NCBI GenBank assembly: GCA_005884765.1
Contig: VAZV01000148.1
Coordinates: 1 to 64,000 of the forward strand
Reading direction: 5' to 3'
DNA length: 64,000 bases
DNA from: Alphaproteobacteria bacterium
GTDB taxonomy: Bacteria > Pseudomonadota > Alphaproteobacteria > Rhizobiales > Xanthobacteraceae
The translations under genes were made by a program, and so were the position numbers. Positions within the stretch are counted from its first letter, which is position 1. Each line of letters starts with the position of its first letter. The notes beneath the pieces are model-generated. The model did not search any database and was not told the origin of the DNA. It saw only the letters and a list, made by a program, of their open reading frames with translations. Below are positions 51,363 to 57,238 of this stretch, piece after piece.

Positions 51363-52265
51363 ATGCTCGCTCGCAGCAAAGCGAGAAGTCAGGAGCGCGC
51401 GCGGGAAGTTAGTTTCATCGGGGCAGCCTCAATGATGACTTTACCGGAGCTGGCGGCAGATGCCTTGGAGGAATTACTCGGCTCCTTCATGCGCCACGTG
51501 TACGGATCTTCGCAGGCGTACCGCGAGATAGTGCTGGCGGCCGCCCGCATAGCCCTCGAGTGCATTGGAAACAGCGACGCTCTCTACCACAATGTCGAGC
51601 ACACGCTGCTCGTAACGCTTGCCGGACATGATATCCTCCGCGGTCGGGCGTTGCACGCCCACATCACCGTGAGCGACTACGCGCACGTCATCATCGCCTG
51701 CCTTGCCCACGACATCGGCTACGTGCGTGGCCTCCTCAAGGATGACGACGCGGACGGTTTTGTGATTGATGCGTCAGGCAGAAAGGTGAGTTTGCCGCGC
51801 GGTTCATCCGATGCCAGCCTGATGCTCTACCATGTCGATCGATCGAAGCTCTACGTGATCGAGAGGATCAAGGGCATTGCGGAGCTCGATGAGCAGCGCA
51901 TTGCTCATGCCATCGAAGGCACCCGATTTCCTCCAGGCGAGGGTCAGCAATATGATGAGGAGGCATCGATCCTTCGAGCGGCGGATTTCATCGGGCAACT
52001 CGGCGATCCCAATTACATCAGGAAAGCCAACGCTCTCTATCATGAGTTTGAAGAAGTTGGCATGAACCGTCAGCTTGGCTATGCATCGCCCGCCGACATC
52101 GTCGACCGCTATCCGCAATTCTACTGGAACAGCGTGGCACCTCACGTTCAGACCGCAATACGCTATCTCAACATGACGTCGCGCGGACGCCAGTGGGTTG
52201 CGAATCTTTACAGTAATGTCTTCCGCGCGGAACGAGAGATCTCGCTTTCCGGCCCGCAAGCTTAA
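51363..52265 (+). CDS. HD-domain phosphohydrolase, cyclic-nucleotide-phosphodiesterase-like
   Basis: 300 residues from the ATG at 51363; internal starts at 51432/51435 are equally good. Metal ligands are visible as YHNVEHT (His76 and His80) and AHDIGY (His116-Asp117), then RAADFIGQLGD late. The YHNxxH spacing is characteristic of class I cyclic nucleotide phosphodiesterases, unlike many plain HD proteins, though the usual following HPG is absent. It could hydrolyse a cyclic nucleotide or (p)ppGpp-like signal. It lies 126 bases before the CHAT operon. Confidence 0.72.
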   Translation: MLARSKARSQERAREVSFIGAASMMTLPELAADALEELLGSFMRHVYGSSQAYREIVLAAARIALECIGNSDALYHNVEHTLLVTLAGHDILRGRALHAHITVSDYAHVIIACLAHDIGYVRGLLKDDDADGFVIDASGRKVSLPRGSSDASLMLYHVDRSKLYVIERIKGIAELDEQRIAHAIEGTRFPPGEGQQYDEEASILRAADFIGQLGDPNYIRKANALYHEFEEVGMNRQLGYASPADIVDRYPQFYWNSVAPHVQTAIRYLNMTSRGRQWVANLYSNVFRAEREISLSGPQA

Positions 52266-52391: not shown

Positions 52392-55300
52392 ATGCTATTT
52401 CGCCAATTGGGGCATAGTTTCCATCGTCGGGTTGTTGGCCAAATCGCTGCGCTCTGCTTTCTGATCGGATCAACGGGATTGGCGTTTCCACTTTCGATGG
52501 AAACGGCCATCGAGAATTGCCGGATGACAGTCGGCAGGCCGATGGTGATGTCATGCATGCAATCAAGTGGTGGTATGGGCAGCTTGGAGGCGTGCCGCGC
52601 CAAGGCGAAGCCACGCGTTCAAGCATGCGTCAAGGCAGCACTGAATACTGCCAATGGGCGCGCGAACGTGGCTATTGCAGTTCCAAATGAGGCCGCACCC
52701 AAGATTGCAGCGGGGAGTGGACTTCCCGCCGGCTTCGTCGCTCCGCCGCGGACGATTTCCGACATCACGGCGATCCTGGATAGCGAAAAGCCCGACCTTA
52801 AGGTCATTCAGCAGTTGCAGGCAACCGCTGATGCTTCTCCGACCGGCAAGGAATCGCGAGAGGATCTAGCGCAATTCTATTTTGGCCGTGGCAATGCGCG
52901 TGCGCAACTTGGCAGGTTGGCAGATTCCATCACGGATGCGAACAAAGCAATCGAGGTTGGACGCGGAGTTGTCAGTCTCAACCTGATGGGACGGTTCATG
53001 CAGCTCGGCGCGCTGCAGTATGCCGTCGCCGGCGACCCGAAAAAGGCGCTTGAGGTCTATCAGCGTCTGTTGCGCGATACCAATGCGCCGGGTGCCAAGG
53101 GCTATCAGTTTGCGACCAACCGGCAGATTAGCTCGATGCTTCTCCAAATGGGGGATATCCCTCAGGCCGAGGCCTATCTACGCCGCAGCGTGTCCTTGAT
53201 CCAGGAAGCGCGGACCAGTGGCATGCCAGGATGGCGTGCTTCCTATGCCAAATTCGCTCATGCCTGGGAATCCGAGATTGATTTCAATCGTGCAATTGTT
53301 TTCGAGGCGCGCGGGCAGTTCCGTGAGGCCGAAGCCGCTTATCGTCTCGCCGAGCAACGCAAATACGCGGGCATGAAGGCGGTGCTCGATTCCGATAATC
53401 CTCCATCGGAATCGCTGCTTCTGCAGGCGATCGATGGCACCGTCCTCAGCCAAGCCCGCGTGAAGGCGCGGCAGGGACGATTGGGGGAAGCCGAGATCGA
53501 CGCCCGCCGCGCCTTGCTGTCCAGGCTCAAGGACACGGGGAAGTACAACGCGGTGACGACGCGATACGTGATGGGCCTCGCAGCAATTCTTGTTGAAGAA
53601 GGACGCTACACAGAAGCCGAACAACTGACGCGCGTGGCCCTCGAAATCAACCAAACGGTCGGCATCCCGGACGATTCGCAACCGACGGTGCAAATCCTTT
53701 CCCAACTTGGGGGGATCCTTACGCTGCAGCGCAAGCCCGAGGCGACGGCGATTTACGATCGGATCGACAAGTCGATTGCCGGCTGGGATCCACAGCGGCG
53801 TCGAATCTTCGAGCTAAATCCATCGCGGATTCTTTCGCTTTATTCCTCGGGCCAGGTTGATGCGGGCATCGCGGCGGCGGAGCAACTGGTGAAGAGCCAG
53901 GTGGGTCGAGTGGGCGAAACTCATTTCGACACCGCATCCGCGCGCGGCACGCTGGCCATTGGACTGATGCAGGCGGGACGCGATGCCGAGGCGATCCGCG
54001 AATTCAAGGCAGCCATACCGGGCATGATGGCGGCCTCGCAGGAGAACTCCGACGACGACAATACGACGACGGTTGCAGCGCGCAGCTTTCGATTGCAGGT
54101 TGTCGTGGAAACCTACTTCGTCATGCTCGCGAGAAATACGGGTTTGGTTGCCGACGTCGGCGCGGAAACGTTTGGCCTCGCTGACGCTATTCGCGGTCAT
54201 TCCGTCCAGCAAGCGCTGGCGGCGTCGAGCGCGCGAGCCGCGGCCAAAGATCCGGCACTCAGCGAACTGGTGCGTAAGGAGCAGGATCTTTCCAAACAGT
54301 TGAATGCGCAACTGGGTACGCTCAATAATGTGCTCGCGCTATCGTCGGATGAGCGCGATGAAAAAGGCGTGCAAGCGATCACCGCTTCCATCGGCAGTCT
54401 GCGGGCGCAGCGGGACAAGGCGCGCCAGGAAATCAATCAAAAATTTCCAGCTTATGCCGATCTGATTTCGCCAAAGCCGCCGACGATCGAAGAAATAAGA
54501 GCCACGCTAGTGGACGGCGAAGCAATGCTGTCTTTCTATTTCGGTCTGAATAGAAGTTTTGTTTGGGCCGTGCCAAAGGCAGGTCCCATTGCGTTCGCCC
54601 AGATCGCTGCGAAGAGCGGGGAGATTGAAACCAAAATTCGCAAATTGCGGGAGGCTCTCGAGCCGCAGGCAGCCATGATATCGGATATCCCCGGCTTCGA
54701 CTTGGGGCTGGCTTATGGACTTTACGAGTTGCTCTTGAAGCCGGTCGAAAGCGGTTGGAAGTCCGCCAAGAGCTTGATTGTCGTCACCAACGGCGCGTTA
54801 GGCTTGCTGCCTGTTTCCTTATTGCCGACGGCACTGGCTGCAGCCAAGGATGGCGATGACGCTCTATTTTCGGGCTATCGAGGGGTGCCGTGGCTCGCCC
54901 GAACCCATGGGGTGACGACGATACCCTCGGCGGCGGCCCTGCGCACACTCCGGCAGCTGCCGCCCGGCAAGCCCAATCGGGAAGAATTCGTGGCATTTGG
55001 CGACCCGTATTTCAACACGGACCAGCAAGCCGAAGCGGAAACCGCAGAGAGTAGGGTTCAGATCGCCGATGCGAGCAACAACCTAAGCCGTGGAACGCCG
55101 TTGAAGCGGCGGAGCAGCCCAAAACTCGAGGGCGTGGATAGCGCGGAATTAGGCCTTTTACCGCGCTTGCCGGACACGGCCGACGAATTGAAGTCGATTG
55201 CGCTGGCATTGCACGCCGACCCGGCCAAAGTGCTGCATCTCGGCAAGAACGCGACGGAAAGCGCGGTCAAGACCCTGGATCTGTCCGGGTTCAAGATCCT

Positions 55301-55787
55301 GGCTTTCGCCACCCACGGCCTCGTGCCCGGTGAACTCAATGGCTTGACGCAGCCGGCCTTGGCATTGTCATCGCCGACCGTCACGGGAGAGGACGGCGAC
55401 GGCCTTCTGACAATGGAAGAAATCCTGGGCCTCAGGCTTGATGCGGATTGGGTTGTTTTGTCGGCCTGTAATACCGCTGCCGGCGCCGGAGCCGGTGCGG
55501 AGGCCGCGTCCGGACTTGGTCGTGCGTTCTTCTACGCGGGAACCCGGGCGTTGTTGGTCACGAACTGGTCGGTGCACTCCCAGTCTGCCCGACAACTGGT
55601 TACCGACTTGTTCAAGCGTCAGGCAGAAAATCCAAAGCTGGGTCGCAGCGAAGCACTCCGCCAGGCGATGATGGCGCTCGTGGACGGACCCGGTTATCTT
55701 AACAGCGAAGGCAAAACCGAATTCGCTTACGCGCATCCCTTGTTCTGGGCGCCGTACACGATTATCGGTGATGGCGGTGCACGTTGA
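52392..55787 (+). CDS. Exported TPR-CHAT (caspase-like) protein
   Basis: 1131 residues from the ATG at 52392; a TTG 25 codons upstream is possible. A hydrophobic segment (~18-36) suggests export. A Cys-rich block follows (ENCRMTVGRPMVMSC, then EACRAKAKPRVQAC). Residues ~110-640 are TPR-like helical repeats. The C-terminal CHAT domain has the catalytic His975 (AFATHGL) and Cys1026 (LSACNTA), the dyad of caspase-fold proteases. It is the first gene of a tight four-gene operon. Proteolysis and substrate are inferred; its periplasmic location is unusual and untested. Confidence 0.85.
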   Translation: MLFRQLGHSFHRRVVGQIAALCFLIGSTGLAFPLSMETAIENCRMTVGRPMVMSCMQSSGGMGSLEACRAKAKPRVQACVKAALNTANGRANVAIAVPNEAAPKIAAGSGLPAGFVAPPRTISDITAILDSEKPDLKVIQQLQATADASPTGKESREDLAQFYFGRGNARAQLGRLADSITDANKAIEVGRGVVSLNLMGRFMQLGALQYAVAGDPKKALEVYQRLLRDTNAPGAKGYQFATNRQISSMLLQMGDIPQAEAYLRRSVSLIQEARTSGMPGWRASYAKFAHAWESEIDFNRAIVFEARGQFREAEAAYRLAEQRKYAGMKAVLDSDNPPSESLLLQAIDGTVLSQARVKARQGRLGEAEIDARRALLSRLKDTGKYNAVTTRYVMGLAAILVEEGRYTEAEQLTRVALEINQTVGIPDDSQPTVQILSQLGGILTLQRKPEATAIYDRIDKSIAGWDPQRRRIFELNPSRILSLYSSGQVDAGIAAAEQLVKSQVGRVGETHFDTASARGTLAIGLMQAGRDAEAIREFKAAIPGMMAASQENSDDDNTTTVAARSFRLQVVVETYFVMLARNTGLVADVGAETFGLADAIRGHSVQQALAASSARAAAKDPALSELVRKEQDLSKQLNAQLGTLNNVLALSSDERDEKGVQAITASIGSLRAQRDKARQEINQKFPAYADLISPKPPTIEEIRATLVDGEAMLSFYFGLNRSFVWAVPKAGPIAFAQIAAKSGEIETKIRKLREALEPQAAMISDIPGFDLGLAYGLYELLLKPVESGWKSAKSLIVVTNGALGLLPVSLLPTALAAAKDGDDALFSGYRGVPWLARTHGVTTIPSAAALRTLRQLPPGKPNREEFVAFGDPYFNTDQQAEAETAESRVQIADASNNLSRGTPLKRRSSPKLEGVDSAELGLLPRLPDTADELKSIALALHADPAKVLHLGKNATESAVKTLDLSGFKILAFATHGLVPGELNGLTQPALALSSPTVTGEDGDGLLTMEEILGLRLDADWVVLSACNTAAGAGAGAEAASGLGRAFFYAGTRALLVTNWSVHSQSARQLVTDLFKRQAENPKLGRSEALRQAMMALVDGPGYLNSEGKTEFAYAHPLFWAPYTIIGDGGAR

Positions 55788-55822
55788 AGCACTTTCCAAC
55801 CGTACGGCGAGACCCCGGATAC

Positions 55823-56263
55823 ATGATGAACAAGATTGGTTCGATACTGGTAGCAGCCGGACTAAGCGTGTCAGGCGGGGCTCATGCGACCAAGTTGATT
55901 ACAGAAGAAGAAGCTCAGCTGCCGCCGCCGAAAGGCGCGGTTGCAGCGGACCGACGCGGGATTTTGCGAGCGCCGAAGGTGGAGTTCGTTTCACCGGGCG
56001 ATACGGTGCATTCGCCACTGCGACTTCAACTGAAATTTGAGTCGTTCGGTGGAGCCAAGATTGATCCAGACTCCGTCAAGATGACGTTTCTGCGAACACC
56101 AAATGTCGACCTCACCTCCCGCATCAAGCCATTCGTGCAAAATGCGGGTATCGATATGCCCGATACCGAACTACCGCCAGGCGAATACATCATTCGAGTT
56201 GACGTCAAAGATAGCGATGGTCACGTCGGCACCACCAGCTTCGTTCTAAAAATCGTGCCCTAG
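55823..56263 (+). CDS. Small exported beta-rich protein of the CHAT operon
   Basis: 146 residues from the ATG at 55823 (a second ATG is one codon later). The signal peptide ends near GAHATK. The mature chain is predicted beta-rich: VEFVSPGDTVHSPLRLQLKF, then DPDSVKMTFLRTPNVDLTSR and YIIRVDVKDSDGHVGTTSFVLK, like an Ig/CopC-type fold with a metal- or ligand-ready loop. It begins 35 bases after the CHAT stop. It may be the protease substrate, regulator or receptor. Confidence 0.7.
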   Translation: MMNKIGSILVAAGLSVSGGAHATKLITEEEAQLPPPKGAVAADRRGILRAPKVEFVSPGDTVHSPLRLQLKFESFGGAKIDPDSVKMTFLRTPNVDLTSRIKPFVQNAGIDMPDTELPPGEYIIRVDVKDSDGHVGTTSFVLKIVP

Positions 56264-56267
56264 TACC

Positions 56268-56468
56268 ATGCTGCCGTGTCCCTACTGCCTATCGCAAAAT
56301 GCCGAAGGAACACTCGTTTGCGTCACTTGCTCGCGAGATATTGCAATACCAGCGACGCTAATGGCTGAACGGGACGAACTTCTGCGCAAGCGCGATATCA
56401 TCCGGGAAGAACTTCACAGGGCGCGGCGCGAAATTGAGACGATTAGAACGCGCAGGAAATCTCGATAG
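56268..56468 (+). CDS. Zinc-ribbon/coiled-coil small protein of the CHAT operon
   Basis: 66 residues, starting four bases after the previous stop, so translationally coupled. The N-terminal ribbon CPYC (4-7) and CVTCSRD (18-24) gives C-x2-C-x10-C-x2-C. A charged helix follows (ERDELLRKRDIIREELHRAR), a plausible coiled coil. It looks like a shortened paralogue of the next gene, lacking the membrane part. The ribbon pattern is like treble-clef/zinc-ribbon domains common in signal proteins. Confidence 0.68.
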   Translation: MLPCPYCLSQNAEGTLVCVTCSRDIAIPATLMAERDELLRKRDIIREELHRARREIETIRTRRKSR

Positions 56469-56473
56469 CACCG

Positions 56474-57238
56474 ATGGAATGTCCTTTTTGCGCTGAAACC
56501 ATCAAGGACGAAGCCATTGCTTGCAAGCACTGTTCGCGCGACTTGCGCGTCGTGCGCCCTATGCTGCTTGAAACCCAGGATCTCGTTGCGGAATTGGATA
56601 GGCTGAGACGCGATCTGGATCGCGTAAATACCAGGCTCGAGCGATACAAATATCCAGTCCGCTATTTTTCTTCTCACATCGTGCTGTATGTTCTTGTTCC
56701 CACCGCACTGCTGGTGATCGCGCATGTCGTGGTCACGATTGTGCTGAACCTCTCTCCGCTGCCGCTGCGGCTGGCGTCGGTTCTCATCCCGGGCTTGTTC
56801 GGCTTTGCAGCTTATCCGTTAAATAAAGTCTGGCTCGAGGGTGCGCTTGCGCTGGGCGGCGTTACGGCAACCTTAAGCATCACGTTGATGCTGATCGTGA
56901 CAGGACTTCATGACCAGGTACCGATCGTGCCGGGATCGTTCGTCGAATGGCGTGAGGTCGTCGAATACGGCAGTAGTATCCTGCTGGCCTTCGTCTCGGG
57001 TAATATCCTCGGCGTCTTGATCTTTCAGGCGTTGCCGAAAGTACTGGCGCAGGGCGGCAAGCCAAATGCCGCGGCTTTCAAGATTGCGCGGTTGCTCGGC
57101 CACCATGTCGGCGAGGAGCAACTGCGCCGCAGGGCGCGCCTCATCCAAGACCTCATCCATACGGCGGGTCCACTCGTCGGCGTAGCTGTGACGGCCATCG
57201 GTTCGATATATGCCGGGCTCAAGGGCATCTTGAGTTGA
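56474..57238 (+). CDS. Zinc-ribbon membrane protein of the CHAT operon
   Basis: 254 residues, starting five bases after the previous stop. The ribbon CPFC (3-6) and CKHCSRD (17-23) repeats the C-x2-C-x10-C-x2-C-S-R-D pattern of its neighbour. A coiled-coil segment (ETQDLVAELDRLRRDLDRVN) follows, then four predicted transmembrane helices (from ~70, starting VLYVLVPTALLVIAHVVVTI). The C-terminal ~60 residues are soluble and helical. Ribbon plus coil suggest a cytoplasmic sensor coupled to membrane action. Function unknown. Confidence 0.72.
   Translation: MECPFCAETIKDEAIACKHCSRDLRVVRPMLLETQDLVAELDRLRRDLDRVNTRLERYKYPVRYFSSHIVLYVLVPTALLVIAHVVVTIVLNLSPLPLRLASVLIPGLFGFAAYPLNKVWLEGALALGGVTATLSITLMLIVTGLHDQVPIVPGSFVEWREVVEYGSSILLAFVSGNILGVLIFQALPKVLAQGGKPNAAAFKIARLLGHHVGEEQLRRRARLIQDLIHTAGPLVGVAVTAIGSIYAGLKGILS

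What the first reader, a model, noticed from the sequence alone, without database searches (positions are those of the whole stretch)
52392..57238. Four-gene CHAT protease-zinc ribbon membrane operon
An exported TPR-CHAT protein with a Cys-rich N-terminus is tightly linked (4-35 base gaps) to a secreted beta-rich protein, a small zinc-ribbon coiled-coil and a zinc-ribbon membrane protein. CHAT proteases usually sit in the cytoplasm in known systems such as gasdermin or CRISPR-linked ones. A periplasmic CHAT with a ribbon/membrane partner would be a different kind of signalling or killing module.
Basis: partly seen in the sequence, partly recalled or inferred. Interest (0 to 1): 0.68.

Follow-up and report, generated by a model that had tools for sequence, protein, structure and literature searches.

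The report
Exported CHAT-or-caspase membrane protease module
A small set of soil-bacterium genes pairs an exported caspase-like protease with a secreted partner and a zinc-ribbon membrane protein; the protease can be either of two caspase-related families while the partners stay the same, which suggests an undescribed protease switch at the cell envelope.

Summary
In detail: CHAT (52392-55787), Ig-like secreted "beta" (55823-56263), small zinc ribbon (56268-56468) and ribbon/4-TM "mem" (56474-57238), gaps 35, 4 and 5 bases. The set is conserved: 63 of 71 fetched loci hold CHAT-beta-small-mem in this order, 61 with mem unbroken; catalytic His/Cys 64/64, ribbon cysteines 68/68 and 66/66.

New here: the protease is exchangeable. 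Of 75 beta homologs in 195 genomes of the genus, 64 sit beside CHAT, 8 beside exported C14 caspases, 3 beside neither. In one caspase lineage the protein carries CHAT's four-cysteine N-terminal domain. Beta plus mem with exported proteases also occurs in another alphaproteobacterial order (caspase), in Variovorax (CHAT) and in genomes of another class (caspases in 10 of 11 loci). Typical betas keep an Arg-rich linker motif (69/69 and 15/16); a second, distant beta type lacks it (0/12).

Best reading: an inner-membrane-anchored periplasmic protease switch, with beta the protease's dedicated substrate or regulator. Linkage is well supported; topology is predicted and mechanism inferred. Function is untested. 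My literature searches found no description.

The parts
52392..55787 (+). CHAT gene: exported Cys-domain + TPR + CHAT protease, 1131 aa
   Evidence: ORF; Pfam CHAT and TPR; 63 orthologs in fetched loci
52392..52484 (+). signal-peptide-like N-terminus (about residues 1-31)
   Evidence: home-made hydropathy/charge/small-x-small rule, 61 of 63 orthologs; the cleavage place is a guess
52494..52670 (+). four-cysteine domain (C43, C55, C68, C79), predicted two-helix stretch
   Evidence: Cys 63/64; shared with TPR-caspase L088/L089 and with stand-alone secreted proteins; helices 36-58 and 65-87 in the model
52752..54227 (+). TPR/helical region (about residues 121-612)
   Evidence: Pfam TPR and helices in the model
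54717..55772 (+). CHAT domain; catalytic His975 (55314-55316) and Cys1026 (55467-55469)
   Evidence: PF12770 3.4e-50, residues 776-1127; dyad 64/64
55823..56263 (+). beta: secreted Ig-like beta-sandwich protein, 146 aa
   Evidence: ORF; AlphaFold pLDDT 80; Ig/CopC/PKD-like matches
55952..55975 (+). Arg-rich linker motif RRGILRAP (residues 44-51) before the Ig-like domain
   Evidence: R45 70/70, G46 69/70, R49 70/70, P51 70/70; mean pLDDT of residues 41-50 is 58; motif in 69/69 betas of the fetched loci and 15/16 other typical betas
56268..56468 (+). small zinc-ribbon + helix protein, 66 aa, no hydrophobic segment
   Evidence: four Cys 68/68; no hydrophobic stretch
56474..57238 (+). mem: N-terminal zinc ribbon, helical stretch, about 4 TM helices, 254 aa
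   Evidence: four Cys 66/66; family hydropathy and charge pattern
56903..56956 (+). predicted periplasmic loop of mem (D147, VPI, P153, EWRE 158-161)
   Evidence: invariant or nearly so, also in Variovorax; topology inferred

Best explanation
An envelope protease module. Shown by sequence: an exported-looking clan-CD protease gene (CHAT here, C14 caspase elsewhere) is kept next to a secreted Ig-like protein (beta) and a membrane protein with a zinc ribbon and about four TM helices (mem); the Nitrobacteraceae loci add a small soluble ribbon protein. Inferred: protease and beta meet in the periplasm, the ribbons sit in the cytoplasm, and mem holds or senses the complex through its conserved acidic outside loop. 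Beta is the dedicated substrate or regulator of the protease, with the Arg-rich linker as the cleavage or docking site. A signal passed through mem and the ribbons releases or activates the protease, which cuts beta and perhaps other envelope proteins. The output (cell death, defence, signalling or envelope remodelling) is not known.
For: Conserved operon: 63 of 71 fetched loci in order CHAT-beta-small-mem, mem broken in 2 of the 63. Of 195 genus genomes mem is in 71, beta in 68, all within the 71, and the Cys domain in 66, 65 of them within the 71. Protease exchange: 64 CHAT, 8 caspase, 3 neither of 75 betas. Caspase-type loci outside the genus: L253, L254, L268-L275 and L277. CHAT in Variovorax with beta and ribbon-mem. 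All 25 caspase ORFs I picked for the check (not every caspase ORF found) keep GHG and the Cys motif, and 24 show a signal-like N-terminus. Shared Cys domain on CHAT and TPR-caspase. Linker motif conserved although low in pLDDT. Topology.
Against: No experiment; no complex modelled. Cleavage after Arg by this CHAT is not supported: separase reads P1 Arg with Asp2151 (PMC9729208 passage), while this family has an invariant His1062 in the WSVHS stretch where the second CHAT of the same genome has Asp (which residue lines the pocket is my judgement). The Arg motif could be a docking or structural element, and the second beta type lacks it in 12 of 12 although 10 of these lie in loci with caspases. 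One beta-mem locus (L276) has no protease nearby, the decayed copy L033/L203 keeps beta without protease, and L200 has instead a neighbour that looks like an L,D-transpeptidase by eye. The C-terminal half of the CHAT model is too poor to use.
Confidence: 0.45

Rival explanations
1. Beta is an inhibitor or chaperone of the protease, not a substrate: it keeps the exported protease inactive (securin-like) and mem removes it on signal.
For: Beta is kept with two different protease families and stays intact in a decayed copy that lost the protease; conserved basic linker motif beside an Ig-like domain; no Asp in the stretch where a P1-Arg pocket would be expected. A protease-plus-protease-inhibition operon with a metacaspase is noted for four Rhizobium strains in PMC3501461; whether it is related was not tested.
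Against: An orphan inhibitor without protease (L033) is unexplained; nothing here tells inhibitor from substrate.
Confidence: 0.25
2. Secreted effector module: protease and beta leave the cell to act on competitors, predators or plants; the ribbon proteins help their assembly or export.
For: Bradyrhizobium and Afipia names dominate the hits; patchy presence, 71 of 195 genus genomes; plasmid copy in a nodule strain; the stand-alone two-module secreted Cys protein.
Against: I noticed no secretion system next to the genes, but did not search for one; linkage to a membrane protein favours action at the own envelope.
Confidence: 0.15
3. Housekeeping envelope maintenance: the protease trims periplasmic or outer-membrane proteins, with beta as adaptor.
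For: A gene that looks OmpA-like by eye inside the G686 operon; OmpA domains in 14 of 217 metacaspase operons (PMC3501461, operon section read); PG-binding-like segment in one caspase below cut-off.
Against: Patchy distribution and several broken copies are unlike a core function.
Confidence: 0.15

Closest known systems
Craspase TPR-CHAT (Csx29) and its substrate Csx30 (type III-E CRISPR)
   Same: TPR plus CHAT protease with His/Cys dyad acting on a dedicated partner; structure resembles separase (PMC9729208 passages; PMC11106740 passages)
   Different: Works with crRNA-guided gRAMP; ours has an export-like signal and a Cys domain, and its conserved partners are Ig-like and ribbon-membrane proteins
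EACC1-caspase two-gene membrane conflict system (PMC7159879, section 33 read)
   Same: A constant membrane component coupled to a caspase-superfamily peptidase; there too the caspase is sometimes displaced, by a cNMP cyclase
   Different: EACC1 has one TM helix and the variable part is fused behind the caspase; here mem has a zinc ribbon and about 4 TM, beta is extra, and the protease itself changes family. The NCBIfam EACC1-caspase model scores 58 and 55 bits against a cut-off of 140 for the two caspases tested
Exported prokaryotic caspases (metacaspases/orthocaspases) of rhizobia
   Same: Partner caspases belong to PF00656; rhizobia are rich in them (PMC3501461 passages)
   Different: That survey's operon section does not name this partner set; it does mention a protease/protease-inhibition operon in four Rhizobium strains, which I could not compare
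Bacterial gasdermin systems (recalled)
   Same: CHAT or caspase protease beside a small partner (recalled)
   Different: Beta is a predicted secreted Ig-like sandwich; no gasdermin family among its Pfam hits

Membership tests
CHAT protease (PF12770) | profile match over the curated cut-off | tested here: met
   168.9 bits against 24
CHAT protease (PF12770) | His/Cys catalytic dyad | tested here: met
   H975 and C1026 in 64 of 64
CHAT protease (PF12770) | proteolytic activity | not testable with these tools
   needs an enzyme assay
Craspase (type III-E) TPR-CHAT | encoded with gRAMP/Cas7-11 and Csx30 | tested here: not met
   the two flanking genes have no Cas family among their Pfam hits; the conserved partners are beta, small and mem; gRAMP itself was not searched for genome-wide
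EACC1-caspase system | single-TM EACC1 gene 5' of the caspase | tested here: not met
   mem has about 4 TM and a zinc ribbon; no EACC1 family among the NCBIfam hits of beta, small or mem, and the two caspases tested score under the EACC1-type cut-off
Known anti-phage defence systems (PADLOC 2023) | match to a system's protein models | tested here: not met
   window proteins: only weak hits, E 0.005 or worse; the two partner caspases hit a generic caspase model (2.3e-6, 1.7e-12)
Bacterial gasdermin system | gasdermin partner with pore domain | tested here: inconclusive
   no Pfam gasdermin hit for beta; beta model matches Ig/CopC/PKD folds with Z at most 7.4
Prokaryotic caspase (PF00656), partner proteins in other genomes | profile over cut-off and H/C motifs | tested here: met
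   7 of 7 proteins scanned are over cut-off; motifs in 25 of 25 ORFs picked

The most novel reading that the evidence does not exclude
A previously undescribed class of envelope switch in which different but structurally kindred proteases (CHAT or caspase, possibly trypsin) are plugged into one constant membrane module; cytoplasmic zinc ribbons read a metal or redox cue through mem and trigger periplasmic cleavage of the Ig-like beta at its Arg linker, giving a bacterial protease-driven death or alarm response run from outside the cytoplasm.
Probability: 0.2. Interest if true: 0.85.

Novelty: new variant of a known kind. Interest (0 to 1): 0.62.

Why it matters
What the many exported caspases and CHAT proteins of soil bacteria do is largely unknown. 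A constant set of partners, kept across protease families and across classes, gives concrete candidates for their substrate, regulator and anchor, and turns a vague question into pull-down and cleavage tests. If right, it adds a periplasmic branch to a protease superfamily best known from cytoplasmic death and defence.

Tried and rejected
Chance adjacency: rejected. The seven genomes searched hold 9-20 caspase hits each, some of them fragments, so a random site within about 3 kb of one is roughly a 1-2% event (my estimate), while 8 of the 11 non-CHAT betas have one. The caspase loci are not all independent: mem tree, 2 changes of protease type (quick tree, careful search unfinished); beta tree, 5 changes counting CHAT and caspase rows only, mostly on weak branches, starred branches forcing only 1-2, with long branches meeting.

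Phage or mobile origin: no beta in phages; 31 viral-contig loci match only within about the first 45 residues of mem, the ribbon. Plasmid records: beta in one Bradyrhizobium and one Variovorax replicon (a Bacteroides hit at E 4e-3 covers 42% and was not followed), mem in the Variovorax one.

Solved structures: no CHAT chain found from the full protein or the CHAT profile, so the S1 pocket was not modelled. CHAT AlphaFold C-terminal half mostly under pLDDT 50: not used. Beta fold searches show a generic Ig-like sandwich; no function read from it.

HD-domain gene upstream (51363-52265): in the maps of 71 loci it recurs only in the sister genome (L044), so not part of the module. G896/L278: generic ribbon, not a member. 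G503 Cys-domain hit (6e-4, 31 residues): no module seen at L205.

Oddity: the order sample shows mem in all 9 same-genus genomes that its listing shows, the genus sample in 71 of 195; I cannot explain the difference.

Literature searches for the module: 'CHAT domain'+caspase+Bradyrhizobium 0 papers; Bradyrhizobium+'CHAT domain-containing protein' 0; 'CHAT domain'+'zinc ribbon'+TPR 0; in the listings no title or abstract start describes it. Beyond listings I saw passages of PMC9729208, PMC11106740, PMC3501461 and PMC7159879, and one section each of the last two.

Full report
OBSERVATION. The four genes are present as described. Pfam finds CHAT and TPRs far over cut-off in the first protein and nothing over cut-off in beta, small or mem; NCBIfam gives nothing over cut-off for any of the four. 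The genome search finds one further CHAT gene, on contig 109.

CONSERVATION. In 297 genomes of the order, mem is found in 9, all of the window's genus, and beta in 10, the tenth being a distant homolog in another family. In 195 genomes of the genus mem is found in 71 (a few of them fragments or weak), beta in 68 and the four-cysteine domain in 66; all beta genomes and 65 of the 66 Cys-domain genomes are among the 71. I fetched and mapped 71 loci (L033-L103, one of them, L035, from another family): 63 have CHAT, beta, small and mem in this order on one strand, with mem broken or truncated in two of these (L101, L102). CHAT-beta gaps are 14-71 bases in 60 and about 530 in 3 that hold an extra gene. 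A scan of named genomes with the mem alignment gave 78 loci, mostly labelled Bradyrhizobium or Afipia (it keeps the best 80 of 124 relatives); all 78 show CHAT (75) or caspase (3) sequence with beta, small and mem, some of them broken or cut by contig ends (the two sets overlap in genomes). The nearest named relative is L161, a MAG titled Alphaproteobacteria bacterium AP_2, 98% identical in mem.

CONSTRAINT. Among aligned orthologs His975 and Cys1026 are 64 of 64, the four N-terminal cysteines 63 of 64 each, the ribbon cysteines 68 of 68 (small) and 66 of 66 (mem). This is what intact, working proteins look like.

PROTEASE EXCHANGE. Four genus loci with beta, small and mem lack the CHAT gene. 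In G216 and G380 two tandem exported C14 caspases lie upstream of beta on the same strand; in G378 and G308 a divergent gene encodes signal + the same four-Cys domain + TPRs + C14 caspase. The Cys domain of that caspase protein aligns with that of CHAT with the same cysteines. Further betas lie beside exported caspases in G112 (second copy), G465 (second copy), G461 and, distantly related, G419. So of 75 beta places in the genus, 64 are beside CHAT (62 fetched, the window, and G449 judged from L181), 8 beside a caspase, and 3 beside neither (the same decayed copy in G000 and G384, and a distant one in G313). The mem tree needs two changes of protease type; a beta tree with distant members needs more, but on weak branches.

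BEYOND THE FAMILY. Variovorax paradoxus (CP063167.1, a 2.48-Mb replicon filed as plasmid; taxonomy line Betaproteobacteria) has a divergent TPR-CHAT gene with a signal-like start by eye, a beta 33% and a ribbon-membrane protein 35% identical over the aligned parts, the latter covering 40% of mem. A phylum-wide beta profile search hit 12 of 398 genomes, two outside the genus: G626 (same class, other order) with ribbon-mem, beta and an exported caspase, and G686 (other class). Among 62 relatives of G686, itself included, 12 have a mem hit; G896 is a generic ribbon and not a member, and the other 11 (G686 plus 10) have beta and mem. Ten of the 11 have exported caspases adjacent, typically caspase / beta-mem-caspase / second beta, with a gene that looks OmpA-like by eye in G686; L276 has none nearby. 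A B. japonicum conjugative plasmid has CHAT and beta; no mem is annotated beside them. A distant beta in G030 lies among two trypsin-like genes.

ANATOMY. The Cys domain is predicted as two helices, 36-58 and 65-87, with Cys43/55 on one and Cys68/79 on the other; a disulphide-stapled hairpin is my inference, fitting an oxidising compartment. It also exists alone: two copies in a secreted protein between CHAT and beta in three loci, and in a secreted protein 1 base after an exported caspase in G429. Beta is a signal-bearing Ig-like sandwich (mean pLDDT 80). Its most striking conserved stretch outside the fold, RRGILRAP here, lies in a linker with mean pLDDT 58 for residues 41-50; R45, R49 and P51 are 70 of 70. 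A loose pattern for it is found in 69 of 69 betas of the fetched loci and in 15 of 16 other typical betas (one search lists 17, L034 being already in the 69). A second, more distant beta type has it in 0 of 12: nine second betas of the G686-type loci, and L198, L200, L035. Mem is predicted with ribbon and helix inside, about four TM helices, a conserved acidic outside loop (D147...EWRE) and an Arg-rich inside tail; the loop is kept in Variovorax. The small ribbon has no hydrophobic segment; I saw it only in the Nitrobacteraceae-type loci.

MECHANISM. I infer a periplasmic protease complex tied to the inner membrane by mem, with beta as dedicated substrate or regulator and the ribbons as the cytoplasmic side. 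Linkage of one beta-mem pair to two protease families of one clan is best explained if beta meets the protease itself. Orthocaspases cut after basic residues (abstract start of PMC6426788, listing), which suits the Arg linker; for the CHAT version this is not supported, because the invariant WSVHS stretch has no Asp where the genome's other CHAT does, and Craspase orthologs show that CHAT cleavage sites can vary and depend on positioning (PMC11106740 passages). Substrate and inhibitor cannot be told apart here.

KNOWN OR NEW. No Pfam or NCBIfam family over cut-off covers beta, small or mem, and PADLOC gives only weak hits; my literature searches found no description. It works somewhat like Craspase-Csx30 or the EACC1-caspase pair but lacks their defining gene content as far as tested. 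I file it as a new variant of protease-centred effector or switch systems; whether it is a new kind depends on its function.

Noticed in passing
L033 7560-8239 (G000 contig 86); L203 (G384): A decayed second copy: beta intact, small ribbon with a stop, a remnant that reads like the mem C-terminus, no protease. The same beta recurs in the sister genome.
   Followed up: partly
L096, L097, L100, between CHAT and beta: A secreted protein made of two tandem four-Cys domains, inserted into the operon in three related genomes.
   Followed up: partly
L197 4842-5750 (G419 C2): A secreted protein with the four-Cys domain followed by a region that looks alpha/beta-hydrolase-like by eye, away from any module seen.
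   Followed up: no
L201 8150-12001 (G461): A 1284-aa exported protein with a weak LprI-like N-terminus and a C-terminal caspase domain, beside beta and a mem lacking its zinc ribbon.
   Followed up: no
L035 5707-10313 (G030): A distant beta among two trypsin-like proteases, hinting that serine proteases may also pair with this fold.
   Followed up: partly
L101, L102, L103, L148, L181: Truncated, split or remnant copies of mem or CHAT: the module seems to be lost repeatedly.
   Followed up: no
L115 (record titled Frankia sp. RB7): A typical Bradyrhizobium-type locus under a Frankia label; possibly mislabelled or a contaminant.
   Followed up: no
window 51363-52265: An HD/phosphodiesterase-like protein (weak Pfam hits) just upstream of CHAT; among mapped loci it recurs only in the sister genome.
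   Followed up: partly
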